From the NCBI RefSeq assembly GCF_004217495.1, contig NZ_SHLC01000001.1, forward strand, positions 1,302,001 through 1,366,000: a DNA stretch of 64,000 nucleotides. Direction: 5' to 3'. This document shows positions 2,223 to 60,359 of this stretch, piece by piece. This stretch comes from Microterricola gilva. GTDB taxonomy: Bacteria; Actinomycetota; Actinomycetes; Actinomycetales; Microbacteriaceae. Below the pieces are notes generated by a model. The model ran no database searches. It saw nothing but the letters and a program-made list of their open reading frames with translations, and was not told where the DNA came from. The position numbers were made by a program, and so were the translations under genes. Positions within the stretch are counted from its first letter, which is position 1. The number at the start of each line of letters is the position of its first letter.

Positions 2223-3212
2223 ATGCCAGAGGGCCACTCCGTCCACAGGATCACCCGCCAGTTCGCCCGTAACTTCGTTGGGCACCGGGTGAGCGCCTCA
2301 AGCCCGCAGGGACGTTTCGCCGAGGGCGCGAGCATGATCGACGGCCGCGTCGTGACCGATGCCAAGGCCGTCGGCAAGCAGATGTACCTGGAGTTCGACA
2401 ACGGGCTCTGGCTGCGGGTGCACCTCGGCATGTACGGGGCGTGGGACTTCGCAGGCGACATCCTGATGGACGCAACGATCGCCTCGGCGAACGGGCGCAT
2501 GGGCCAGACCAACCAGCGCGGAACGATCCTCGACGGCCCGATCCACGACCGCGACGGCGAGAACTCCATGCACTCGATCGGAGCTCCGCGCCGCACCCGC
2601 GTGCGCATGGCGGAGTCCGAGAAGGAGAGCGACGCGCTCGACACGTTCCCGCCAGAGCCGATCGGCCAGGTGCGCGTGCGCCTGCTCACCGACACCGTCT
2701 GTGCCGACCTCCGCGGCCCGACCGCCTGCGAGGTGCTCGATCCCGCCCAGGTCGACGCCATCATCGCCAAGCTCGGGCCCGACCCGCTGCTGGACAACTC
2801 GCAGGCGGCCGAGGACCGCTTCACGGCCGTCGTGCGCAAGAAGCCGACGCCCATCGGCCTGCTGCTGATGGACCAGAACGTCGTCGCAGGCATCGGCAAC
2901 GTCTACCGGGCGGAGATGCTCTTCCGCGCCCGCCTGAACCCGCACACGCCGGGCAAGCTCGTGCCGGAGGACGTGGTGCGCGGTCTCTGGCGCGACTGGG
3001 CGCACCTGCTCAGGATCGGCGTCGAGACCGGGCAGATGATGACCATGGACGACCTCGAGGGCGATGCGTACGCCCAAGCGATGGCGAACCGTGCAGACCG
3101 CCACTGGGTTTACAAGCGCGAGGGCCTGCCCTGTCGCATCTGCGGGACGCACATCACGCTCGAGGATTTCGGGGCACGCAAGCTGTACTGGTGCCCCAAC
3201 TGCCAGCGCTGA
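2223..3212 (+). CDS. Fpg/Nei family DNA glycosylase (endonuclease VIII-like)
   Basis: 329 residues. The mature N-terminus PEGHSVHR carries the catalytic Pro2 and Glu3 of bifunctional Fpg/Nei glycosylase/AP lyases, and the PEGH form points to the Nei branch. The family helix-two-turn-helix is visible at QNVVAGIGNVYRAE (about residues 218-231). The C-terminus ends in a CxxC-x16-CxxC zinc finger (CRIC ... CPNC). It excises oxidised bases and nicks the abasic site during base excision repair. A long insertion rich in charged residues (about 85-150) is seen in many actinobacterial members. It lies 20 bp after rpiB and 17 bp before the PaiB-like gene, so the three may be co-transcribed. Confidence 0.9.
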   Translation: MPEGHSVHRITRQFARNFVGHRVSASSPQGRFAEGASMIDGRVVTDAKAVGKQMYLEFDNGLWLRVHLGMYGAWDFAGDILMDATIASANGRMGQTNQRGTILDGPIHDRDGENSMHSIGAPRRTRVRMAESEKESDALDTFPPEPIGQVRVRLLTDTVCADLRGPTACEVLDPAQVDAIIAKLGPDPLLDNSQAAEDRFTAVVRKKPTPIGLLLMDQNVVAGIGNVYRAEMLFRARLNPHTPGKLVPEDVVRGLWRDWAHLLRIGVETGQMMTMDDLEGDAYAQAMANRADRHWVYKREGLPCRICGTHITLEDFGARKLYWCPNCQR

Positions 3213-3229
3213 GGTGAGAAGCTAGCTGC

Positions 3230-3865
3230 ATGCGCCAGACTCCGAGCTTCATCCTCGCCAGTGACGATGCCGTCAAGCGATTGATCCGCGAGAACCCGTG
3301 GGTCACGATGGTCAGCCACACGGATGCCGGCGAGCTCGTCGCCTCGCACTACCCGGTGATCCTCGACGAGGCCGCAGAGGACGGCATCGTGATCCTCAGT
3401 CACGTCGGGCGCCCTGACGAGCAACTGCACGAGCTCGGTCGGCACCCCCTGCTCGTGATCGTGCAGGGCCCTCACGGCTACATCTCACCCGGCTGGTACG
3501 ACGCGAAGCCGGCCGTCCCCACCTGGAATTTCGTCGTCGCCCATCTGCACGGAACGCCGGAGCTGCTGAGCGATGACGAGAACCTCCAGGTCCTCGACCG
3601 CCTCGTCGACCACTTCGAGGAGCGGATGCCGGAGCCGCGCCGCATGAACGGCACAGAGGCCAACGCGGAGTACGCCGCCCGCATCGTCTCAGGCACCGTC
3701 GGATTCCGGATGCGCGTTGAGCGCTACACCGGCAAGAACAAGATGAGCCAGAACCGCCCGGCCGAGACGGTCGAACGCATCATCCACGAGCTGGAACACG
3801 GCGAGCACTACGCCAGCCCGGAGCTGGCCCGCGAGATGCGCCGCGCCCGCGGCGAGGCGGTGTGA
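3230..3865 (+). CDS. PaiB-like FMN-binding protein
   Basis: 211 residues matching the PaiB family (FMN-binding negative transcriptional regulators with a split-barrel flavin fold). Characteristic segments are the N-terminal MRQTPSFILASD, LxSHVGRPDEQ, the core GPHGYISPGWY and PTWNFVVAHLHG, and near the C-terminus KNKMSQNRP, which resembles the KLSQNR signature. Bacillus PaiB represses sporulation and protease genes; flavin binding is the only role that can be carried over with confidence. It starts 17 bp after the glycosylase gene. Stop is TGA at 3863. Confidence 0.88.
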   Translation: MRQTPSFILASDDAVKRLIRENPWVTMVSHTDAGELVASHYPVILDEAAEDGIVILSHVGRPDEQLHELGRHPLLVIVQGPHGYISPGWYDAKPAVPTWNFVVAHLHGTPELLSDDENLQVLDRLVDHFEERMPEPRRMNGTEANAEYAARIVSGTVGFRMRVERYTGKNKMSQNRPAETVERIIHELEHGEHYASPELAREMRRARGEAV

Positions 3866-13548: not shown

Positions 13549-13596
13549 GAGGGGCTGACGAGAATCGAACTCGCATCATCTGTTTGGAAGACAGAG
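13549..13596. repeat. attL core (48-bp direct repeat)
   Basis: Identical to 53411-53458. It corresponds to tRNA-Gly from the 5' strand of the anticodon stem to the 3' end plus one base. After 13596 the sequence departs from the tRNA (CAAACTAG instead of GCTTTACC), so this copy is a non-functional tRNA fragment. Confidence 0.95.
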
Positions 13597-13637: not shown

Positions 13638-14879
13638 CTATCCACTGGCATCTGCCGATTCGAGAGTTCCCGTAGAGCCCCGGCCATTGCTCGCATACGG
13701 TGCAGGATAGGGTGCAGAATCACCCTCTGGCTCGGCAAGCTTCCCCATCATCTGGCCGAGCTCCTTCTTGCGCTCCTCGAGCGGGTGCACGTACGTGTCA
13801 TACGTGAATGACGGGTTAGCGTGTCCCAACGTCGCAGCGACCACGACAACGTCGTTGCCCATGTCGAGCATGAGCGTGGCCGCGGTGTGGCGCAGCTGGT
13901 ATCGGCGCGCATGGGGGAGGCCGGTTGATGCGAGCAGCGCCTTCCAGTACTGGGAGTCCAGGCGCGGTTCAATCGGGCGCCCATTGGGGCGGGTGAACAC
14001 CAAGCCGACCGGCTTTCCGGCGTACTCCCACTCTTTGTAGACGCCAGCGTTCTCGGCCTGATCGATCATCTGTTGCGCGCGCGTCGCCTTGAGCTGTTCT
14101 ACGACGACAGGGGCAAGCGTGATGATCCGATCGCCGGCATTCGTTTTGGGGATCGGCATATAGATCAAACCCTTGCCCGTGACGCGCTGTAGCTGCCCGT
14201 GGACGCGGATTGAGCCGCCCACCAAGTCCACGTCTGCCCACGACAATCCAAGGGCCTCAGCGGGGCGCAGGCCGTACATGAGCGCAAGGCTCCACCGCGC
14301 TTCGAGCCTGTCGCCCCTCGCTGCCCGCAGCACAGCACGCGCGTCAGCCTCACTGAATGATGTTGTCTCCGCTTTCGGTCGCTCTGGGATGACCGCATGC
14401 AGCGCCACGTTCTTTCCGATACGCCCTCGAGCAACGGCAACATTCAAAGCTGCACGAATGTTCGCGTGCACGTTTCCGATCGAGCTGGCGCCCAACGGCT
14501 TCCCGCTCTTGCTTACCTTGCCGGAAGCCATGTCGGCGTAGAGCTTCTCGAGCATCTCAACCTTCAGCTTCGACAGCTTGACCGTTCCCAAGTTCGGCGC
14601 GATATACGCCTTGAGTGACCACTCATAGTCTGCGAGCACGCCAGGCTTCAGATCAGCAATCGTGAGCCAATGCCGTATCCACTCCTCGAGCGTCCAGTCG
14701 CGGCCCATGACAAGCGTGCCGTCATCCTTGCGATTGGCCAGCTCGCGGACGGCCGTCGAGGCCAACACTTTCGTCTTGAATACGGGGGTGTACTTCCGCT
14801 TCCCGTCTTCGGTGATGTACCCGCGGTACCCGTTGGCGACCTTTGAAACCGAGCCGGCGCCTTTCGCGTTCCTGCCCAT
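13638..14879 (-). CDS. int: tyrosine-recombinase integrase
   Basis: 413 residues. An N-terminal AP2-like arm-binding region (NGYRGYITEDGKRKY) is followed by a SAM-like core-binding domain (about 60-150) and the catalytic domain with the first Arg in MYGLRPAEALGL, the HxxR box in YQLRHTAATLML, the second His in LGHANPSF and the nucleophile Tyr in YDTYVHP. It catalyses site-specific insertion and excision at tRNA-Gly. ATG 14879 is preferred over GTG 14885 since GAGGAG lies five bases upstream. The 3' end is 41 bp from attL. Its C-terminal APYPAPYA stretch is encoded by the repeated arm-site DNA (13696-13720). Confidence 0.95.
   Translation of the reverse strand: MGRNAKGAGSVSKVANGYRGYITEDGKRKYTPVFKTKVLASTAVRELANRKDDGTLVMGRDWTLEEWIRHWLTIADLKPGVLADYEWSLKAYIAPNLGTVKLSKLKVEMLEKLYADMASGKVSKSGKPLGASSIGNVHANIRAALNVAVARGRIGKNVALHAVIPERPKAETTSFSEADARAVLRAARGDRLEARWSLALMYGLRPAEALGLSWADVDLVGGSIRVHGQLQRVTGKGLIYMPIPKTNAGDRIITLAPVVVEQLKATRAQQMIDQAENAGVYKEWEYAGKPVGLVFTRPNGRPIEPRLDSQYWKALLASTGLPHARRYQLRHTAATLMLDMGNDVVVVAATLGHANPSFTYDTYVHPLEERKKELGQMMGKLAEPEGDSAPYPAPYASNGRGSTGTLESADASG
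13696..13720 (+). repeat. candidate integrase arm-type site, left copy
   Basis: A 25-bp element matching 53338-53362 at 23 of 25 positions in the same orientation. It contains two GGTGCAG half-sites 12 bp apart. It lies 100 bp inside attL, within the integrase reading frame. Confidence 0.6.
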
Positions 14880-14898
14880 TTCCACTCCTCAAATCTCG

Positions 14899-15020: not shown

Positions 15021-15230
15021 TTGGGCATTGGTATCAATGGTGATGGCTGGCGTTGCGTGCAAGAGACAGTCGACCGTGAAGAGATCATCGAGCGCTTGGG
15101 AGCCGAGGCGGTGAACCTTGACCATGTACTTGCTGGGGCGGTGAAGCCGTCAACCATGTTCATAGCGGCCTCGCTCCTGGCGTTTCCGCTCTCATTCTCT
15201 GACCTCTTCACGATCAGGATCCCCGTCTAG
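15021..15230 (+). CDS. tentative small hydrophobic-tailed protein
   Basis: A 69-residue frame starting at TTG 15021 with GGGGAAG upstream, ending base-to-base with the convergent repressor stop. It has an acidic helical first half (DREEIIERLGAEA) and a hydrophobic C-terminal half (FIAASLLAFPLSF). GC at third codon positions is high, as in real genes here, but there is no recognised family and the start is poor. It could be an immunity or superinfection-exclusion peptide, or not be a gene. Confidence 0.3.
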   Translation: MGIGINGDGWRCVQETVDREEIIERLGAEAVNLDHVLAGAVKPSTMFIAASLLAFPLSFSDLFTIRIPV

Positions 15231-15529
15231 CGCGGCTGGCGCCGGATGACTTCCTCGAGCAGTGCGATCGTGTCGATATCCTCAATGCCCACACGCACCT
15301 CGTGGAGGTTGGCTTCTTCCTTCGTGATGAAGCCGGCCTCCGCGAGTGCCTCTAGAACATTGCGGTTGTAGGCGCGGGCGAACTTCAGGACGAAGTCCCA
15401 GCGTGGGGGATCTCCGCGCTTCCACCGGCTGACTGCTGACGGGTCGAAGTCCGCCTTCCTTGCGATTTCGACTCCGCCAGCATTGTTTGTGACGCGCTGG
15501 ACATAGTCCCACCATGGCGTTGTGTTCAT
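15227..15529 (-). CDS. candidate immunity repressor (small HTH protein)
   Basis: 100 residues from ATG 15529. A helix-turn-helix is visible in GGVEIARKADFDPSAVSRWKRG, followed by an acidic C-terminal helix. Its position, minus-strand orientation and divergence from a Cro-like gene identify it as the likely lysogeny repressor. It is too short to hold an S24/LexA-type self-cleavage domain, so RecA-driven autoproteolysis is not possible. No ribosome-binding site precedes the ATG; a TAGTGT -10 box ends six bases upstream, so the mRNA is probably leaderless. Confidence 0.72.
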   Translation of the reverse strand: MNTTPWWDYVQRVTNNAGGVEIARKADFDPSAVSRWKRGDPPRWDFVLKFARAYNRNVLEALAEAGFITKEEANLHEVRVGIEDIDTIALLEEVIRRQPR

Positions 15530-16137: not shown

Positions 16138-16562
16138 CCGCGTTCAAGGGGCAGGCGCTCTCCGCGGACTCGCTCGAGGCAGTAAAAGCTGAGGCTCGCG
16201 TGCCGATCCTCTTCGATCGAGCGGCCGGCAAAGGCGTGATGTACACGCACCGTGGCGTGGATGTCGTCTACATCCTGGAGTTCGCGAACGGCACTGTGAA
16301 GGTTGGCCAGTCCGTCGACTTCGAGACACGCGTTCGTGCGAACTGCAGCAACCGCCGCGTACGTGGCCACAAGCTGATGCGCTTCTGGCGCGTTGGCTCC
16401 GATGCGCCACTCGCCGACGAGGCAACTCTGATCCGTCTCGCGGGGGAGTTGGGCGGCACAGCCGATGGTCGCACCCGGGAGTGGTTCACGGGCGTTGAAG
16501 GCATGACTCTGATCAACGCCGCAGAGCGCGAGCTTGCGACTCTCGAGAGGGAGGCATCATGA
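16134..16562 (+). CDS. GIY-YIG nuclease-like (T5orf172/MUG113 type) protein
   Basis: 142 residues. The core VVYILEFANGTVKVGQSVDFETRVRAN matches the VYVL...VKVG.....R...H pattern of the T5orf172 branch of GIY-YIG domains, and REWFTG near the C-terminus fits the conserved W-F end. The catalytic tyrosine of the first strand is present, an arginine follows in the helix, and acidic residues lie in DEATLIRL. It sits between the excisionase-like and antirepressor genes with four-base overlaps. In phages this domain often accompanies antirepressor or KilA-N proteins; its target is unknown. Confidence 0.65.
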   Translation: MTAFKGQALSADSLEAVKAEARVPILFDRAAGKGVMYTHRGVDVVYILEFANGTVKVGQSVDFETRVRANCSNRRVRGHKLMRFWRVGSDAPLADEATLIRLAGELGGTADGRTREWFTGVEGMTLINAAERELATLEREAS

Positions 16563-17272
16563 CCGGCCTCGACATGTTCACCTATTCAGGCCAGCAGGTT
16601 CGGACTGTCATCATCGACGGCGAACCGTGGTTCGTGGCCAAGGACGCCTGCGACGTTGTAGGCATCAGCAAGTACCGCGATGCTGTCGCACAGCTGGACC
16701 CCGACGAAAGGGTGTCCGTAGCCGTGGACACCCCTGGCGGCATGCAGATGATGGCCGCGGTAAACGAGCCGGGCTTGTTCGCCCTCATGCTCATCAGCCG
16801 CTCGCCGATCGTGCGTGACTTCCAGCGTTGGGTGCGGCACGAGGTTCTCCCGACGATCAACCGCACGGGCCAGTTCGGTTCCGCACTTCCCACCGATTTC
16901 GCTGAAGCCCTCGAGCTCGCAGCTGCAGAGGTTCGCCAGCGGGTCGCACTCGAGGCGCAGATCGCAATCGACGCCCCGAAGGTGGAGGCGTACGAAACTC
17001 TCATGGATGCGGACGGCGCCTACTCAATGGATGCGGCGGCGAAGATCCTCGGTATCGGCCGCACGACGTTGTTCACCCGGTTGCGCGCTGAGGGCATCAT
17101 CCAGGCTGGGCAGCGGACCCCGTACCAGCGTTACGCGCATCATTTCAATGTGACGGCATCCACCTACACGGACAGCGAGGACGTATCGCACACCACGTTC
17201 ACGTCGAAGGTTCGCCCGTCCGGTCTCGACTTCATCGCGAAGAAGCTCGGACTTGTGGCGGTGGCGTCATGA
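16559..17272 (+). CDS. phage antirepressor, BRO-N plus KilAC
   Basis: 237 residues. The BRO-N domain (about 1-105) is recognised by VRTVIIDGEPWFVAKDAC, then AVNEPGLFALMLISRSP and FQRWVRHEVLPTINRTG. The C-terminal KilAC domain (about 130-237) has the HTH MDAAAKILGIGRTTLFTRLRAEG. Such proteins counter the lysogeny repressor or act as early regulators. Given that the repressor here has no cleavage domain, this is one candidate route to induction. Confidence 0.88.
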   Translation: MTGLDMFTYSGQQVRTVIIDGEPWFVAKDACDVVGISKYRDAVAQLDPDERVSVAVDTPGGMQMMAAVNEPGLFALMLISRSPIVRDFQRWVRHEVLPTINRTGQFGSALPTDFAEALELAAAEVRQRVALEAQIAIDAPKVEAYETLMDADGAYSMDAAAKILGIGRTTLFTRLRAEGIIQAGQRTPYQRYAHHFNVTASTYTDSEDVSHTTFTSKVRPSGLDFIAKKLGLVAVAS

Positions 17273-17798: not shown

Positions 17799-18389
17799 AT
17801 GACAGAGGGAATCACGTTCGAGGCCTTCCCGAAGATCGCCCGCTTGAACCGGGGCATGGTCATCACGGAGAAGCTCGACGGAACGAACGCAGCAGTCGTC
17901 ATCACAGAAGCAGGTGAGGTCGGCGCTCAGTCCCGTAACCGGCTGATCACACCGGATGCCGACAACTACGGTTTCGCCGGCTGGGTGGATCGCAACGCTG
18001 CCGAGCTGCGCGACATTCTCGGCCCGGGTCGCCACTTTGGTGAGTGGTGGGGCTCAGGCATCCAGCGCAAGTACGGCCTCACTGGCGGCGACAAGCGTTT
18101 CAGCCTGTTCAACACGGGCAGGTGGAGCGCCGACGAGCTCGTGGGCGTTGAGGGGCTGGGTATTGTCCCGGTTCTCGCGCAGGGCCAGTTCGACAACTGG
18201 GTCATCGCCGAGCAGGTTGAGCGACTTCGCACGCACGGTTCGGTGGCTGCCCCTGGCTTCATGAAGCCAGAGGGTGTCGTCGTATTCCAGTCGGCCAGCA
18301 GAACGCTTTTCAAGGTCACGGTCGACGGTGACGAAGCGCCCAAGGGTGCTGCTGGTCACGCTCTCGATGAAGAGCGACCTGCGGCCTAG
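17799..18389 (+). CDS. RNA ligase family protein
   Basis: 196 residues. The nucleotidyltransferase motif I EKLDGTNA carries the lysine that is adenylated, followed by motif Ia-like QSRNRL, GEWWGSG (motif III region), KPEGVVVF (motif IV) and FKVTV (motif V). This is a short, core-only ligase. It would seal 3'-OH/5'-phosphate RNA ends, as in repair of tRNAs cut by host defence nucleases; no kinase/phosphatase partner is seen nearby. SD GGAGAGG precedes ATG 17799. Confidence 0.82.
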   Translation: MTEGITFEAFPKIARLNRGMVITEKLDGTNAAVVITEAGEVGAQSRNRLITPDADNYGFAGWVDRNAAELRDILGPGRHFGEWWGSGIQRKYGLTGGDKRFSLFNTGRWSADELVGVEGLGIVPVLAQGQFDNWVIAEQVERLRTHGSVAAPGFMKPEGVVVFQSASRTLFKVTVDGDEAPKGAAGHALDEERPAA

Positions 18390-47358: not shown

Positions 47359-49128
47359 ATGACTCTTGAGCTCATCACGAACATCATGGGGCCTCAGGGG
47401 CCTATTGGTCCGATGGGGCCGGTGAACCCTGACTCTGCGCCGACCGACGAGGCTATCGGTGAGTGGGTGGGTGTACCGAGCGAGACTCGCACTGCACTCC
47501 TGAAGAACGGTCTTACCGGCTGGTTGCATGTCGACGGTTTCGGGGCGAAGCATGATGCTGGCGTGACGGACTCCACCTTGGCGATCCGTGCCGCGTTGGA
47601 TGCTGCCAGCCACGGTGACACGATTTACTTTCCCGGCACAGGGCCCGGCGCCTACTACAAGATCACTGACACGATCACTGTCACGAAGACGAACATTCGC
47701 TTCATGGGCGCACCTCGTGACGCGTACGCATCCTCGATCCGGTGCAACGTCGCAGGGAAGACGATGATCCTTGTGAAAGCTGCAGGGTTCGTCATGGAAA
47801 ACGTTGGCCTCGTAGGCGACGGGGCAATCCCGCTCGGCGCCGGGGCGACCGTCACTGGGCTCGAGGTGTGGGGCGACAACGACGGTAACTGTGACGCAGT
47901 GGTCCGAGGGACCACGTTCCAGCAGTTGAAGCTCGGGGCGCGCACCCGTGGGCGGAACGTGAACTTCGACCTCGACACGATGTTCTCTAACTGCCTCGAG
48001 GGAATCGCGTTCGATGGTCCTGACGCCGTGTTCCACACCGGCCCGAACCGCGAGGACATCCGCGGGCACGCGGTCAAGAACTGCAGGTTCCACACCAACG
48101 GAACACTCAAGACTCACGCGGTTATCCGCTTCACGCCGGCGTCGAAGACGAACGGGGCGATCGTTCGAGATAACTTCTTTGACGCTGGCGGGCAGGCTGC
48201 GCACATCGTCGCAGAGGGAGAAGCAGCAACACCCGCTACGTCCACGATCCGCGGGCTCAGCTTGAAAGACAACGTTCACCACCAAGTGGAGAATCGGGCG
48301 TACGACCTGAAGAACGTGCTTTACAGCTGGATCGACAACCCGAACATCATCGGGTCGTCGTCGGGCGGCGTGTGGAGCGAGGATGCGATTCTGCTGACGA
48401 ACGTGTCCCGATCCAAGGTAAAGGGTGTCTCGGGCAACGTCATCGGCCGTTCGGGAATCAAGATGCGAGGCTGCTCCGTTGTGAGCCTGAAGAATATCGA
48501 CTTTGACAGTGTCGGCATGGACACCGCCGCGGGGACATTTGATGTCCTGGATGTCGACTCCACGAATGACCAGATCCTGATCTCCGACGTCACAGCTAAT
48601 GGGGCGCCCGGTTATGGGTTCAATGGCAACCCAACGGGTAGTGCGCTCTACGATGGCGTGTTCGTTAGCTGTGTGCTTGGGACCGTCAACTCTGACACTG
48701 TGCTGAACAAGGTGCAGCGTGGGTCAAACAGTTTCGTAGAGAACAAGCACGGCCGGCTTGAGGACATCGGGTACAAGGGGCATGATTTCTCATCGGGAGT
48801 TGCGAAACCCGTCGCGACGATCGCAACAGGAGGAAACCTCGCTGGATTCCTTCTCGAGGTGGAGGTCACAGCACAGAACGGCGCCCCGCTGAACGCTTAC
48901 TTGTTCGCGCGACGGTACGTGAACCCGAACAATGGGGCTCCAATTGTGACGACGCTCGGTGCGGACGCTGCAAGTGGCGTAACGCTCACGATTACCGGGA
49001 CGGGGGCGAATGTGAGTGTGTCCGTAACTGTTGGCGGCACGACGTTCGGCAGCGTCCGCCTCCGGACAAGCGCGCCGAGCGGGTCAGGCGCTGTGAATAA
49101 GCGGCAAGCCGCGATTACTATGCTCTAA
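47359..49128 (+). CDS. tail spike / receptor-binding protein with beta-helix
   Basis: 589 residues from ATG 47359. A short collagen-like GPQGPIGPMGP stretch near the N-terminus should trimerise the protein. GWLHVDGFGAKHDAGVTDST opens a pectate-lyase-like right-handed beta-helix (about 65-500), and a C-terminal beta domain ends the protein. Spikes of this type bind and often cleave cell-surface polysaccharide; the catalytic residues cannot be picked out by eye. It overlaps the convergent acyltransferase by 11 bases. Confidence 0.82.
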   Translation: MTLELITNIMGPQGPIGPMGPVNPDSAPTDEAIGEWVGVPSETRTALLKNGLTGWLHVDGFGAKHDAGVTDSTLAIRAALDAASHGDTIYFPGTGPGAYYKITDTITVTKTNIRFMGAPRDAYASSIRCNVAGKTMILVKAAGFVMENVGLVGDGAIPLGAGATVTGLEVWGDNDGNCDAVVRGTTFQQLKLGARTRGRNVNFDLDTMFSNCLEGIAFDGPDAVFHTGPNREDIRGHAVKNCRFHTNGTLKTHAVIRFTPASKTNGAIVRDNFFDAGGQAAHIVAEGEAATPATSTIRGLSLKDNVHHQVENRAYDLKNVLYSWIDNPNIIGSSSGGVWSEDAILLTNVSRSKVKGVSGNVIGRSGIKMRGCSVVSLKNIDFDSVGMDTAAGTFDVLDVDSTNDQILISDVTANGAPGYGFNGNPTGSALYDGVFVSCVLGTVNSDTVLNKVQRGSNSFVENKHGRLEDIGYKGHDFSSGVAKPVATIATGGNLAGFLLEVEVTAQNGAPLNAYLFARRYVNPNNGAPIVTTLGADAASGVTLTITGTGANVSVSVTVGGTTFGSVRLRTSAPSGSGAVNKRQAAITML

Positions 49129-50185
49129 CCGCATCGGGGGCAGCTTGCTTCGACAGCCTGCCACCCCGCCTCTTGAACTTCTGCAGCGGCTTCTCCACGA
49201 GGAACCAGCTGGCGGCAGCAAGGGGCAGGGTGGCGGCAACGCTTGCGATCGCGAAGCCGAAAAGCGGCAGTGCGGAGAGGCCGAGAAGCACAAGCAGCTG
49301 CTGCACTGGGAAAGCGTAGATGTACATGCCGTAGGAGAAGTCATTCCGGAGCACGAGCCTCTTGTGGTTGGCCAGGGCACCAAGCCCGATCAGCCCATAT
49401 GCGAGGAAGGGTGCGGCAACGAGTCGGTATTCGGGGAGCAGCGTCGAGGCGGTCGCAACCGCGAGCGCACCGATGACTAGTGGCCATGACACGGGGAGCT
49501 TCCTCGTGAGTTGGTAGACGAGCGCACCGGCCGAGAACATGAGGCCGAACCGAGCTGCGATGGCTACGTTCTCGCTCTCCACCCAGTCTGCGCTTGAGGC
49601 AAGTAGAGCGATCCAGCTGGCAATAAAGATCAGCGGGACTGTCGCTCGGAAACGGAGTAGCCCGGCGACGCCGGCTGCGAGGATCGCCAGGTAGCAGAGG
49701 AACTCCCAGAAGAGGGTCCAAAGCGAACCATTCCATACGCCGGGGTACGGGATGCCCGATGGTGAGCCTGCAATATCGAACTGGAACATCCAGAGGGCTG
49801 CGTTTTTGAGCACGTATGACAGCGACTCAAAAGAGTAGATCGGTTGCCCGGTTCCCGAAAGCAGGATACCGATGGGCGCGAAGACTGCTGCGGTCACGAT
49901 GAGGCAGACGTAGAACGCGGGCAGGATGCGGATCGCTCGGGCACGGAGGTACCGGCGTGGGGATGGGTTGGCCAGCCAGCTTCCTAGGATGAGAAACCCC
50001 GAGATGGCGAAGAACCCATCGACCCAGAACTGGCCGCGAAGTTCGCCGACTTCGCCCCACGCGAACTCTTTCCCCGCCAGCAAGGGTGAATGCCCGAGGA
50101 TCACTCCAATTGCGAGCAATAAGCGTATGGCGTTTAGGGAGTTCTGCTTTCGATCGAACGCATCGCTCAGTGTCCGTCTGGGCAT
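49118..50185 (-). CDS. acyltransferase 3 family membrane protein (lysogenic conversion candidate)
   Basis: 355 residues if started at ATG 50185; an ATG 18 bases upstream (50203) is also possible. About ten membrane helices. The active-site region LNAIRLLLAIGVILGHS has the R...H pair of OafA/acyltransferase 3 proteins, and FWVDGFFAISGFLILGSW is the next conserved motif. These enzymes move acyl groups onto surface sugars. On the strand opposite the late genes, it fits a moron expressed in the lysogen that alters the cell surface. Confidence 0.88.
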   Translation of the reverse strand: MPRRTLSDAFDRKQNSLNAIRLLLAIGVILGHSPLLAGKEFAWGEVGELRGQFWVDGFFAISGFLILGSWLANPSPRRYLRARAIRILPAFYVCLIVTAAVFAPIGILLSGTGQPIYSFESLSYVLKNAALWMFQFDIAGSPSGIPYPGVWNGSLWTLFWEFLCYLAILAAGVAGLLRFRATVPLIFIASWIALLASSADWVESENVAIAARFGLMFSAGALVYQLTRKLPVSWPLVIGALAVATASTLLPEYRLVAAPFLAYGLIGLGALANHKRLVLRNDFSYGMYIYAFPVQQLLVLLGLSALPLFGFAIASVAATLPLAAASWFLVEKPLQKFKRRGGRLSKQAAPDAVRA

Positions 50186-50481
50186 TTCCTGAGCGTAGCG
50201 CATGTGGAGTCGAGCCTGTCCTTTCGGTTCACGTCCACCCATGCGGTGATGGTGAGCGTCACCCACATGACCGTCCAGAACAGGGAGTATCCGAACGCGG
50301 CTGAGCCGTGCTCGAGCGACGGCGCCCAAGCCCACCACAGGGCGAGTGACAGGATGCCAGCGAGGCCTGCACCGAACCACACATCGTCATAGTCGCGGGG
50401 GGTGGCTTGCTCTGTGACGCGTTCCCGCTCGATGCGTGCACGCCAATAGTTGGTCGGTGTCGCGGTCGCCTGAGGTGTCAT
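50167..50481 (-). CDS. two-helix membrane protein of the acyltransferase cassette
   Basis: 104 residues. Charged N-terminus (YWRARIERERVTEQ) and two membrane helices (FGAGLAGILSLALWWAWAP and FWTVMWVTLTITAWVDV). Its ATG lies in the loop of a GGTGT/ACACC palindrome and its 3' end overlaps the acyltransferase start by 19 bases, so the two are probably coupled. No family recognised. Confidence 0.65.
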   Translation of the reverse strand: MTPQATATPTNYWRARIERERVTEQATPRDYDDVWFGAGLAGILSLALWWAWAPSLEHGSAAFGYSLFWTVMWVTLTITAWVDVNRKDRLDSTCATLRKCPDGH

Positions 50482-50692: not shown

Positions 50693-51391
50693 ATGGTGCA
50701 CCTGATCAAAGCTGCACGCGGCAACATCAACACACACCACGGGGAGCAGATCGGTCGTGGCTTTCCTCACGTTGGTATCGACGTTGGTTGGGGCGGTGGG
50801 CTTGAGCTCTACGCCCCAGCCGCGGGCTGGCTCACGTGGTCTGAGGCGGGCACGTACGGCAACCTAGCCGTCATCACGCACGACGATGGCACCCGGTCCC
50901 GCATCGCACACGCAGACGGCTACCTCGGATTCAATGGCCGCCGCGTCGAACAGGGCGAACACATCGGGACCATGGGGAAGTCTGGCGGCCCGTGGGGCTC
51001 GTCCGGTTGGTTCGTGCACTGTCACCAGGAGTACTGGGTGAACGGCCGCGCGGTCAACCCTCTCGACTACATGACCAGCACCGCTGGTTCCGGAATCACA
51101 CCAATTGAGGAAGACGACATGTACACAGACAAAGATCGTGAACGCGACGACATCACCGCGTGGCGCGTCGAACAGATCAAGAACACGCTGGACGAGATCG
51201 CGCTAGGTCGCGGTGTCGTGAACGCGAAACTCGACACCGCACTCTGGGCTGTCGGTGACCCGAAATCCGGACTGCGCACGATGGTCGCCGGCATCAACGG
51301 TGGCACCGCGACACCCATCGACCTCGCTTCAATCGCCACGGCCGTGCAGGACGAAGAAGACCGGCGCAACCGCGACCGGCTCAACCGCTAA
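50693..51391 (+). CDS. endolysin, M23 peptidase type
   Basis: 232 residues from ATG 50693 with CAGGAG upstream. HVGIDVGWGGGLELYAPAAGWLTW carries the first His and Asp zinc ligands (HxxxD), and FVHCHQEYWVNGRAVNPLDYM the HxH motif of M23 (LytM-type) metallopeptidases, which cut peptide cross-bridges in peptidoglycan. The last ~90 residues have a helical region and a tail that occurs in actinophage lysins and probably binds the wall. Lysis function is inferred from the domain and the holin genes that follow. Confidence 0.86.
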   Translation: MVHLIKAARGNINTHHGEQIGRGFPHVGIDVGWGGGLELYAPAAGWLTWSEAGTYGNLAVITHDDGTRSRIAHADGYLGFNGRRVEQGEHIGTMGKSGGPWGSSGWFVHCHQEYWVNGRAVNPLDYMTSTAGSGITPIEEDDMYTDKDRERDDITAWRVEQIKNTLDEIALGRGVVNAKLDTALWAVGDPKSGLRTMVAGINGGTATPIDLASIATAVQDEEDRRNRDRLNR

Positions 51392-51417: not shown

Positions 51418-51699
51418 ATGCCAGATTGGCTCAACAGCAGCCTGACAGTCGCCGTAGCTTTCGTGCTCGGCATCGTCGGAACAGTCCTGACCGGCAAGCG
51501 TGACAAGCGCTCAGCCGAATCCACCCTGATCGACCAGCTGCAGGAAGAGCTGGCCGGCTACCGCGAAACCACCAACGCCCGCCTCGACAAGCTCGAGGCG
51601 GAGAACGCCGGGTACAGGCGGTTCGTGTTCGCGCTCATTGACCACGGCGACGCGAACGGCATTGACCGGCTCCCGTGGCCCAACGAACTTCCCCGATAG
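51418..51699 (+). CDS. holin-like / spanin-like protein (one helix plus coiled coil)
   Basis: 93 residues. An N-terminal membrane helix (LTVAVAFVLGIVGTVLTG) is followed by an Arg/Lys switch and a coiled coil (STLIDQLQEELAGYRETTNARLDKLEAEN). This layout is common next to actinophage holins. ATG 51418 follows GGAGGG that is part of a stem. Confidence 0.65.
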   Translation: MPDWLNSSLTVAVAFVLGIVGTVLTGKRDKRSAESTLIDQLQEELAGYRETTNARLDKLEAENAGYRRFVFALIDHGDANGIDRLPWPNELPR

Positions 51700-51707
51700 G
51701 AGACACC

Positions 51708-51977
51708 GTGACTCACGCAGCACCCACCCGTACGCCGCTCTGGTTTCCGAATCAGCGCGTCATCCGCACAACCGTCCAGGCGATCGTCGGACTCATCCCG
51801 ACACTTGTCGCGATACTGCTCATCCTCGCGGATCAGTGGCCCGTCCAGTGGCTCATCGCTGCAGCCGGCGTCGGCGTGAGTGTGCAGGCCGCGCTCGCGA
51901 AGATCATGGCACTGCCCGCAGTAGACGCATGGCTGACAGAGAACACCGCGCTTGGGTCCGCCCCACGCGAGAAGTAG
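51708..51977 (+). CDS. holin candidate (two membrane helices)
   Basis: 89 residues from GTG 51708 with ATAGGAG upstream. Two hydrophobic helices (QAIVGLIPTLVAILLILADQW and WLIAAAGVGVSVQAALAKIM) and polar ends match class II-type actinophage holins. It comes last in the lysis cluster. Confidence 0.72.
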   Translation: MTHAAPTRTPLWFPNQRVIRTTVQAIVGLIPTLVAILLILADQWPVQWLIAAAGVGVSVQAALAKIMALPAVDAWLTENTALGSAPREK

Positions 51978-51990
51978 CGCCAACACTTGA

Positions 51991-52032
51991 CCCCCAGTGG
52001 TCGCCTCTAGCGGGGCGGCTGCTGGGGGCTCT
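51991..52032 (+). terminator. terminator at the end of the late operon
   Basis: CCCCCAG paired with CTGGGGG around an internal GC-rich stem, followed by CTCTTTT, just after the holin gene. Confidence 0.65.
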
Positions 52033-52327
52033 TTTGCGTTGGCTCGCCGTGTAGGTACTGATACTCGGGAGCCCCCGGAACGCCTCTTGCGAGCAGCCGC
52101 TGATGTGTCTCGTTGCAAGCTTGCTGCAGCGTCCGGTAATGCCCGATCATGCGTCGGCTGTTCTCGTGCTCGGCCCACGTTTGTGCTTTGTAGTACACCT
52201 CGTCACCGCGGCGCATGATGCGGATCAGCCCATAACACTTGCCGAGGGTGTCGATCATCTTCCATGTACCGGTAGGTTGCTCTACCGCTGCGAGGATCGG
52301 ATACCAACGATTCTCACGTCTCTCCAT
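52007..52327 (-). CDS. small leaderless gene under an SOS box
   Basis: 106 residues. WYPILAAVEQPTGTWKMIDTLGKCYG, then IRIMRRGDEVYYKAQTWAEHENSR has the aromatic and charged look of a folded protein. It resembles small uncharacterised actinobacterial proteins, and no named family is claimed. There is no ribosome-binding site: TATCTT (-10) ends six bases before the ATG and TTGCAT (-35) lies 17 bp further, so the mRNA should be leaderless. A LexA-type SOS box covers the -10. The 3' end runs into the late terminator. It may trigger induction. Confidence 0.62.
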   Translation of the reverse strand: MERRENRWYPILAAVEQPTGTWKMIDTLGKCYGLIRIMRRGDEVYYKAQTWAEHENSRRMIGHYRTLQQACNETHQRLLARGVPGAPEYQYLHGEPTQKSPQQPPR

Positions 52328-52330
52328 TCT

Positions 52331-52346
52331 TCGAAGATACGTTCGA
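52331..52346. promoter_or_regulatory. LexA (SOS) box on the promoter of the 52007-52327 gene
   Basis: TCGAAG-ATAC-GTTCGA differs at one of the 12 fixed positions from the actinobacterial consensus TCGAAC-N4-GTTCGA. It overlaps the -10 box (52334-52339) of the minus-strand promoter (-35 at 52357-52362). Confidence 0.68.
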
Positions 52347-52417
52347 GAAATAATGGATGCAAGTCAGCTGGTGCGATCGCTGCGGCGGGTGTAGACCTAA
52401 ACGTGCAGGGACTCCTC

Positions 52418-53410: not shown

Positions 53411-53458
53411 GAGGGGCTGACGAGAATCGAACTCGCATCATCTGTTTGGAAGACAGAG
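53411..53458. repeat. attR core (48-bp direct repeat)
   Basis: Identical to 13549-13596. Here the repeat joins the host 5' half of tRNA-Gly and so restores a complete gene. Confidence 0.95.
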
Positions 53459-53482
53459 GCTTTACCACTAAGCTACAGCCCC
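53412..53482 (-). tRNA. tRNA-Gly(TCC)
   Basis: 71 nt. Acceptor stem GGGGCTG/CAGCCCC, D stem GCTT/AAGC, anticodon stem TCTGT/ACAGA with loop CTTCCAA (anticodon TCC, reads GGA), T arm with GTTCGATTC, discriminator T, CCA not encoded. The 3' half is phage DNA. It serves as the prophage insertion site. Confidence 0.95.

Positions 53483-59084: not shown

Positions 59085-60359
<1,275 letters not shown>

What the first reader, a model, noticed from the sequence alone, without database searches (positions are those of the whole stretch)
52007..52362. SOS box placed exactly on the promoter of a leaderless prophage gene, while the repressor cannot self-cleave
The gene at 52007-52327 has TTGCAT-N17-TATCTT with six bases to its ATG (leaderless), and TCGAAG-ATAC-GTTCGA covers the -10. 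This differs by one base from the actinobacterial LexA site. The candidate lysogeny repressor (100 residues, 15227-15529) has no room for an S24/LexA peptidase domain. Together this suggests a two-step induction path in which host LexA holds down a phage antirepressor-like protein, as in a few enterobacterial phages but with an unrelated protein. What is seen: the promoter, box and repressor length. What is inferred: the inducing role.
Basis: partly seen in the sequence, partly recalled or inferred. Interest (0 to 1): 0.78.

Follow-up and report, generated by a model that had tools for sequence, protein, structure and literature searches.

The report
LexA-controlled leaderless prophage accessory gene
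A small gene at the end of a bacterial prophage appears to sit directly under the host's DNA-damage switch (LexA); relatives of the gene in the same bacterial family often carry the same switch without obvious phage neighbours, so it looks more like a borrowed damage-response gene than a dedicated phage trigger.

Summary
The minus-strand promoter TTGCAT-N17-TATCTT-N6-ATG carries a one-mismatch actinobacterial LexA box on its -10. The Leifsonia sp. Root4 prophage keeps promoter and box. The own genome's imuA', imuB-like, lexA and recA genes have similar sites. Of 138 distinct homologous stretches, 21 have a box with at most one mismatch within 160 nt. In 14 of 18 near-box cases a start codon lies exactly 3 nt after the box. 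LexA control is very likely.

The antirepressor role is not supported. The protein is 87% identical in window and Root4, yet their putative repressors are unrelated. Of 10 box-bearing relatives scanned, six have chromosomal-type neighbours. Thirteen viral-contig relatives lack a box. I read the gene as an SOS-inducible accessory ("moron") member of an undescribed Microbacteriaceae family, probably host-directed; function unproven.

Side finding: 61 other homologues match a pattern for a leader hairpin with a constant GGCCGG loop and a covarying stem; none of them has the box.

The parts
52007..52327 (-). 106-aa protein P0001; basic (computed pI 9.5), ~75-residue domain (family consensus WHPILAA...GYRA..T...GY.RTLRAAC.AAH; here WYPILAA) plus low-confidence tail
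   Evidence: dN 0.067 / dS 0.76 against Root4 over the first 97 codons
52331..52346 (-). LexA box TCGAACGTATCTTCGA, 1 mismatch, ends 3 nt before the ATG
52334..52339 (-). -10 hexamer TATCTT inside the LexA box
   Evidence: TATATT in Root4; TAT[GAC]TT in 16 of 18 near-box homologues
52357..52362 (-). -35 hexamer TTGCAT, 17 nt from the -10
   Evidence: TTGCAG in Root4, TTGCAT in L038
15227..15529 (-). candidate lysogeny repressor, 100 aa HTH protein, no peptidase domain found
16559..17272 (+). KilAC/Bro-N antirepressor (Ant), 237 aa; 93% identical in the Root4 prophage
13638..14885 (-). tyrosine integrase
13549..13596 (.). attL, 48-bp direct repeat
53411..53458 (.). attR, 48-bp repeat inside tRNA-Gly (53411-53482)
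51418..51977 (+). two small genes just before P0001 (51418-51699, weak holin-like hit; 51675-51977, unknown PHROG); 91% and 90% identical in Root4

Best explanation
The gene is an SOS-inducible accessory gene ('moron') at the attR end of a 39.9-kb prophage. Between damage events host LexA sits on a box that covers the -10 and keeps the promoter shut. When RecA triggers LexA cleavage the promoter opens and makes an mRNA that starts at or next to the ATG, so a small basic beta4-alpha protein appears early and independently of the phage repressor. The protein belongs to an undescribed family of small proteins common in Microbacteriaceae. Its SOS control recurs in relatives, several of them with chromosomal-type neighbours, so the protein most likely acts on the host during the SOS response (nucleic-acid metabolism, recombination or growth control) rather than on the phage repressor. 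Shown by sequence: promoter, box, conservation, family, prophage position. Inferred: LexA binding, the leaderless start, damage induction, and the host-directed role.
For: Box and promoter read directly. The Root4 prophage keeps box, spacing and start while the intergenic DNA upstream diverges. The own genome has lexA and recA; boxes with 0 and 1 mismatch lie before imuB-like and imuA' genes and boxes with 2 mismatches before lexA (two) and recA (one, with the same CTTCGA half-site). In the first set 11 of 71 distinct homologues had a box with at most 1 mismatch within 120 nt, about 0.28 expected from the density of such sites in the fetched loci (that density includes the boxes themselves). 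In the larger set 21 of 138 within 160 nt, in several clades: at least 7 changes forced by well-supported branches, 8 on the best tree against 16.9 for shuffled labels, so the box is also inherited within clades. A start codon exactly 3 nt after the box in 14 of 18 near cases. Purifying selection on the protein. Neighbours of 10 box-bearing relatives (20 proteins, 14 with a Pfam hit): PMSR, MerR, OsmC, MFS, DeoR, TetR-like, beta-helix, thiolase, GH1, TraG-type, SSB-like; no structural phage gene among the hits.
Against: No expression or binding data. 56 of 138 homologues have neither box nor hairpin leader by these patterns. SSB-like genes also occur in phages (recalled) and one locus (L061) has an endolysin-like match (34% over 117 aa), so for L056 and L061 plasmid, integrative element or phage cannot be told apart; six of 20 neighbours had no hit. 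The phrog_9 terminase test misses prophages (none found in G280, whose copy lies among phage-like genes). The AlphaFold model is moderate (pLDDT 81, pTM 0.68) with no Foldseek hit at E<=0.001, so no activity is indicated. The Root4 prophage has a second, perfect LexA box beside its integrase, which fits SOS-driven excision or induction in that lineage.
Confidence: 0.57

Rival explanations
1. One reading: P0001 is a LexA-controlled antirepressor that binds the 100-aa repressor after DNA damage and induces the prophage, as GfoA/Tum/AntC do.
For: Short repressor candidate without peptidase hit; gene outside the immunity region under a LexA box; the Root4 putative repressor is also short. Same logic as Gifsy/186/N15 (PMC3121763 passages), where one antirepressor can act on two repressors.
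Against: Same protein with unrelated putative repressors; SOS-controlled relatives beside chromosomal-type genes; 13 viral-contig homologues without the box; a separate KilAC/Bro-N antirepressor is present.
Confidence: 0.17
2. A narrower form of the best reading: P0001 modulates the SOS machinery itself (RecA filament, LexA cleavage or cell division), analogous in role but not in sequence to DinI or SulA (both recalled), buying time for mobile elements.
For: SOS control recurs with chromosomal-type, conjugation-type and phage neighbours; SSB-like genes beside it in L040 (below Pfam's cut-off), L056 and L061; Gifsy LexA operons carry a dinI homologue (PMC3121763 passages).
Against: No sequence or significant fold match to any known protein; most homologues lack a box.
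Confidence: 0.25
3. P0001 is a defence or superinfection-exclusion moron that happens to be SOS-inducible in this lineage.
For: Found near an end of the record in vB_MoxS-R1 and in several viral contigs and as several copies in some genomes; typical moron placement.
Against: PADLOC gives no hit for P0001 and only weak hits (best E 0.013) for 6 families in 1-3 of 54 members each.
Confidence: 0.15
4. The box is a chance match and LexA does not act here.
For: 35 sites with at most one mismatch exist genome-wide against 18 in the reversed-pattern control; a second one lies in the window in a coding stretch.
Against: Same position 3 nt before a start codon in 14 of 18 near-box homologues and conserved in Root4.
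Confidence: 0.03

Closest known systems
LexA-controlled antirepressors of Gifsy prophages (GfoA, GfhA), phage 186 Tum, N15 AntC
   Same: Small protein outside the immunity region, promoter under host LexA, repressor not cleaved (PMC3121763, abstract and passages)
   Different: Relatives have chromosomal-type neighbours; putative repressor differs between prophages carrying the same protein; repressor binding unknown. Sequence relationship to these antirepressors was not tested directly (P0001 has no PHROGs or Pfam family)
Phage GIL01 / host LexA (gp7)
   Same: Host LexA holds down phage transcription (PMC4551915, search listing only)
   Different: By its abstract LexA represses the phage lysogenic promoter there; here one accessory gene
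Actinobacterial LexA regulon (Streptomyces venezuelae; own imuA' cassette)
   Same: 16-bp operator of the same type (S. venezuelae consensus tCGAAC-N4-GNNCGa); prophage-cluster genes are among the most induced LexA targets there (PMC9380542, passages)
   Different: P0001 belongs to no family in the PHROGs, Pfam and NCBIfam scans made here
Microbacterium phage vB_MoxS-R1 gp70
   Same: Homologous protein at the same right-end position of a mitomycin-inducible prophage
   Different: No LexA box with at most one mismatch at gp70; R1 carries a 190-aa regulator next to a metallo-protease gene

Membership tests
Host LexA regulon of the window's genome | 16-bp LexA operator at the promoter | tested here: met
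   1 mismatch, covers the -10; conserved in Root4
Host LexA regulon of the window's genome | Genome encodes LexA and RecA and has this operator before known SOS genes | tested here: met
Host LexA regulon of the window's genome | LexA binding and induction by DNA damage | not testable with these tools
   needs gel shift and RNA-seq
LexA-controlled phage antirepressor | Gene outside the immunity region under LexA | tested here: met
   box at 52331-52346 against immunity region about 15.2-17.3 kb; LexA binding itself untested
LexA-controlled phage antirepressor | Cognate repressor without a self-cleavage domain | tested here: met
   100 aa, no S24 hit; that it is the lysogeny repressor is inferred
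LexA-controlled phage antirepressor | Protein goes with a matching repressor across prophages (my criterion; not strict, since antirepressors can act on several) | tested here: not met
   87% identical protein with unrelated putative repressors in window and Root4; one prophage pair only
LexA-controlled phage antirepressor | Binds and inactivates the repressor | not testable with these tools
   needs pull-down and induction assay
KilAC/Bro-N antirepressor (Ant) | Bro-N and ANT domains | tested here: not met
   P0001 has neither; they are in the gene at 16559-17272
AP2-like DNA-binding domain | three-stranded sheet plus helix, AP2 profile hit | tested here: inconclusive
   model strands 21-25, 31-40, 43-50, 60-64, helix 67-81; no Pfam AP2 hit listed at E up to 10, though filters drop most weak hits; Foldseek AP2 hits only at E 0.7 in PDB and 0.06 in BFVD

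The most novel reading that the evidence does not exclude
An undescribed mobile single-gene unit of Microbacteriaceae and their phages encodes a small SOS-time effector whose expression control is exchangeable: either a leaderless promoter with the LexA operator on its -10, or a leadered mRNA that begins with a covarying GGCCGG-loop hairpin followed by a stretch able to pair with the ribosome-binding site, never both. The prophage in the window carries the LexA form.
Probability: 0.4. Interest if true: 0.65.

Novelty: new variant of a known kind. Interest (0 to 1): 0.5.

Why it matters
The cases of host LexA acting directly on phage genes that I saw or recall come mainly from enterobacterial and Bacillus phages and CTXphi, with LexA-target prophage genes also reported in Streptomyces. 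This case puts it in a Microbacteriaceae prophage, with an undescribed protein and a compact layout (operator on the -10 of a leaderless promoter) that recurs across a gene family. It gives a concrete set of genes for asking what SOS-induced accessory proteins do for phages and other mobile elements. It also corrects a tempting inference: 'LexA box plus short repressor' does not by itself identify an antirepressor.

Tried and rejected
Family searches: PHROGs, Pfam and PADLOC for 54 members and NCBIfam for P0001 alone gave nothing usable. Phospholip_B (P0001 E 0.0012, below its cut-off; 2 of 54 members at E up to 10) and phrog_31637 (1 of 54 members, E 0.0024) were judged chance. PDB sequence search with the profile: 0 hits at E<=10. 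Foldseek against PDB and BFVD: no hit at E<=0.001; the best BFVD hit (an anti-restriction nuclease, E 0.0097) is too weak to use, and P0001 is basic, which does not fit a DNA mimic. A single-sequence model of homologue L012 was poor (pLDDT 63) and discarded. tblastn of P0001 in phages: no match; L056 and L012 in plasmids: no match. Class-wide profile search: 7 of 394 genomes, all the own genome or labelled same family; that search scored only 12 candidates per genome, so absence elsewhere is not proven. Neighbours were clustered over the loci fetched by then: the family itself is the largest cluster (42 loci), the next covers 18 loci; positions and identities of the other clusters were not followed up. 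The regular expression for the leader hairpin was written after looking at the sequences; one of its 61 matches (L036) looks spurious. Of 54 distinct leaders 47 were aligned (near-copies and L036 left out), then split by stem length into 34 and 12, and one (L045) dropped. A plain-pattern genome search for the leader was no better than its control; the covariance model was used instead. L198 looked like a chance hit and was dropped. Papers: no paper describing LexA control in Microbacteriaceae or this family was found with the searches.

Full report
1. The observation. Read on the minus strand, 52362 to 52325 is TTGCAT - 17 nt - TATCTT - CGAAGA - ATG. The 16 bases TCGAACGTATCTTCGA (52331-52346) differ from TCGAAC-N4-GTTCGA at one of 12 specified positions, contain the -10, and end 3 nt before the ATG. 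The window has one other site with at most one mismatch, at 60124 in a coding stretch outside the prophage. One-mismatch sites are not rare genome-wide: 35 against 18 for the reversed pattern. The site alone would be modest evidence.

2. Host LexA. The window lies at 1302001-1366000 of a 3.67-Mb genome placed in the same genus as G129, which is Leifsonia sp. Root4 by its contig length; Leifsonia belongs to Microbacteriaceae. It encodes LexA and RecA. A Y-family polymerase gene next to imuA' and dnaE2 (imuB-like; its hits are below NCBIfam's cut-offs, imuA' and the error-prone polymerase are above) has a perfect box and imuA' a one-mismatch box; lexA has two boxes and recA one with 2 mismatches each. 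The recA box has the same CTTCGA half-site as the prophage box.

3. Conservation. The Root4 prophage carries an 87% identical protein. Its box is TCGAACGTATATTCGA with -35 TTGCAG, the same spacer and the same 3-nt gap, while the upstream intergenic DNA hardly aligns. The codon comparison gives dN 0.067 and dS 0.76. Homologues occur in 79 of 398 genomes of the family and in 35 of 60 genomes of one genus. In the first set 11 of 71 distinct homologues have a box with at most one mismatch within 120 nt of the conserved WHPIL motif; the density of such sites in the fetched loci predicts about 0.28. In the larger set it is 21 of 138 within 160 nt (the 138 are distinct stretches and include second copies of tandem domains and weak fragments). 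Four of the 21 lie 63 nt or more away. Of the 17 near ones plus L041 (two mismatches, added by hand), 14 have a start codon exactly 3 nt after the box (L038 has a second one at 0), two 4 nt, two 10-11 nt; 16 of 18 keep TAT[GAC]TT at the -10 place. On the family tree the box needs 8 changes, at least 7 forced, against 16.9 for shuffled labels (108 rows, 86 columns, many forks open; three second domains of tandem forms and L061, whose box lies 336 nt away, count as without box). So SOS control sits in several clades, is inherited within them, and is fixed in position. This is inference from sequence; no binding was measured.

4. The protein. 106 aa, computed pI 9.5. AlphaFold with 54 aligned sequences gives four strands and a helix, pLDDT 81, pTM 0.68. 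No Pfam, PHROGs, NCBIfam or PADLOC family fits P0001, and no fold match reaches E 0.001. The order of strands and helix recalls AP2-like domains; this is a lead only.

5. Where relatives live. Twenty neighbours of 10 box-bearing relatives were scanned with Pfam; 14 had a hit. Six loci have chromosomal-type neighbours (L077 methionine sulfoxide reductase and MerR; L078 OsmC; L079 MFS transporters; L063 DeoR and a weak TetR-like hit; L038 beta-helix and thiolase; L041 a glycosidase). L040 lies between a TraG-type coupling protein and a weak SSB-like gene. L056 and L061 lie beside SSB-like genes, which also occur in phages; L061 has in addition an endolysin-like match. L095 had no hit. No structural phage gene was among the hits. 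The terminase family phrog_9 rings in 5 of 20 genomes searched, near the gene only in the window and Root4. That test is incomplete: G280, whose copy lies near matches to window prophage genes (holin-like 39%, a 945-aa gene 24%, Ant 37%) and an integrase, gave no hit. Phage-borne copies: window and Root4; G280; Microbacterium phage vB_MoxS-R1 gp70, a mitomycin-inducible prophage (PMC9030533, passages); and 13 viral contigs (L199-L211; nine of them relatives of R1). None of the 13 has a box with at most one mismatch within 300 nt upstream; two-mismatch matches lie about 95 nt upstream in four of the R1-like ones (L203, L206, L207, L211). L199, L200 and L201 show the hairpin leader by eye, and the R1-like group has another short promoter region.

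6. The antirepressor reading. [quoted passage not shown] The window fits the outline: the repressor candidate has 100 aa and no peptidase hit. Against it: Root4 has a 115-aa HTH protein as putative repressor unrelated to P0002, although P0001 is nearly the same. Several relatives have chromosomal-type neighbours. The other phage copies examined lack a clear LexA box. The early region already encodes a KilAC/Bro-N antirepressor at 16559-17272, 93% identical in Root4, whose own control was not studied.

7. Best reading. An SOS-inducible accessory gene of a 39.9-kb prophage bounded by 48-bp repeats at 13549-13596 and 53411-53458, the latter inside tRNA-Gly. LexA cleavage frees the promoter and the protein is made from a leaderless message. 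Because the same SOS control recurs beside chromosomal-type genes, the target is more likely in the host.

8. A second control type. 61 of 138 homologues match a leader pattern with a hairpin of loop GGCCGG just downstream of a -10-like element, followed by a stretch that can pair with the ribosome-binding site; none of the 61 has the box, against 21 with a box and 56 with neither (Fisher p 1.3e-6, not corrected for relatedness). In 34 aligned leaders the 5-bp stem is paired in 93.5% of cells with 40 of 170 cells changed on both sides; no shuffle of 500 reaches these or the covariation score, and slid controls give 0-6 such cells; two other measures (pairs with a double change, further pair types) do not exceed the shuffles. 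A second set of 12 agrees: 97.9% paired, 5 of 48 cells doubly changed. The pairing with the ribosome-binding site is 83% formed but shows no covariation. Eight loci scanned against Rfam gave only tRNAs. A covariance model gives 27 matches at E up to 1 in 71 held sources: 22 just before a family gene (many of them its own training sequences), one before a remnant (L071), four elsewhere at E 0.06 or weaker. In 14 genomes it gives 16 matches: 12 before a family gene or fragment, the same remnant, and three unrelated ones at E 0.04 or weaker; three genomes with the shorter-stem leader (G023, G236, G152) gave none. This leader is not in the window, whose gene has the LexA form.

Noticed in passing
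L012, L019, L030, L064, L072, L173 and others, just upstream of P0001 homologues: Covarying 5' leader hairpin with constant GGCCGG loop, then a stretch complementary to the ribosome-binding site; no Rfam match in the eight loci scanned; never together with the LexA box in 138 stretches.
   Followed up: partly
   Followed up: partly
L112:3061-3076 and 3084-3329 (+) (Root4 prophage): Perfect LexA box 7 nt before an 81-aa gene next to the integrase; the translation looks like a small HTH/excisionase (recalled resemblance, no PHROGs hit).
   Followed up: partly
window 17799-18389 (+): RNA ligase homologue in the early region of the prophage.
   Followed up: no
window 49118-50380 (-): O-acetyltransferase gene on the opposite strand just before the endolysin-like gene 50693-51391, perhaps a surface-modifying moron.
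   Followed up: no
L039, L040, L175, L178: Tandem two-domain forms of the family, first domain of a WQPKL type in L039 and L040; LexA box before the tandem in L039, L040 and L175.
   Followed up: no
L034:4656-4671: Perfect LexA box in the own genome overlapping the listed start of a 210-aa ORF without an NCBIfam family, next to a thioredoxin-reductase-like gene.
   Followed up: no
L036, L050, L058, L062, L066, L085, L087, L091: In 8 of 55 loci scanned a P0001 homologue lies within about 1 kb of a tRNA gene, perhaps marking old integration sites.
   Followed up: no
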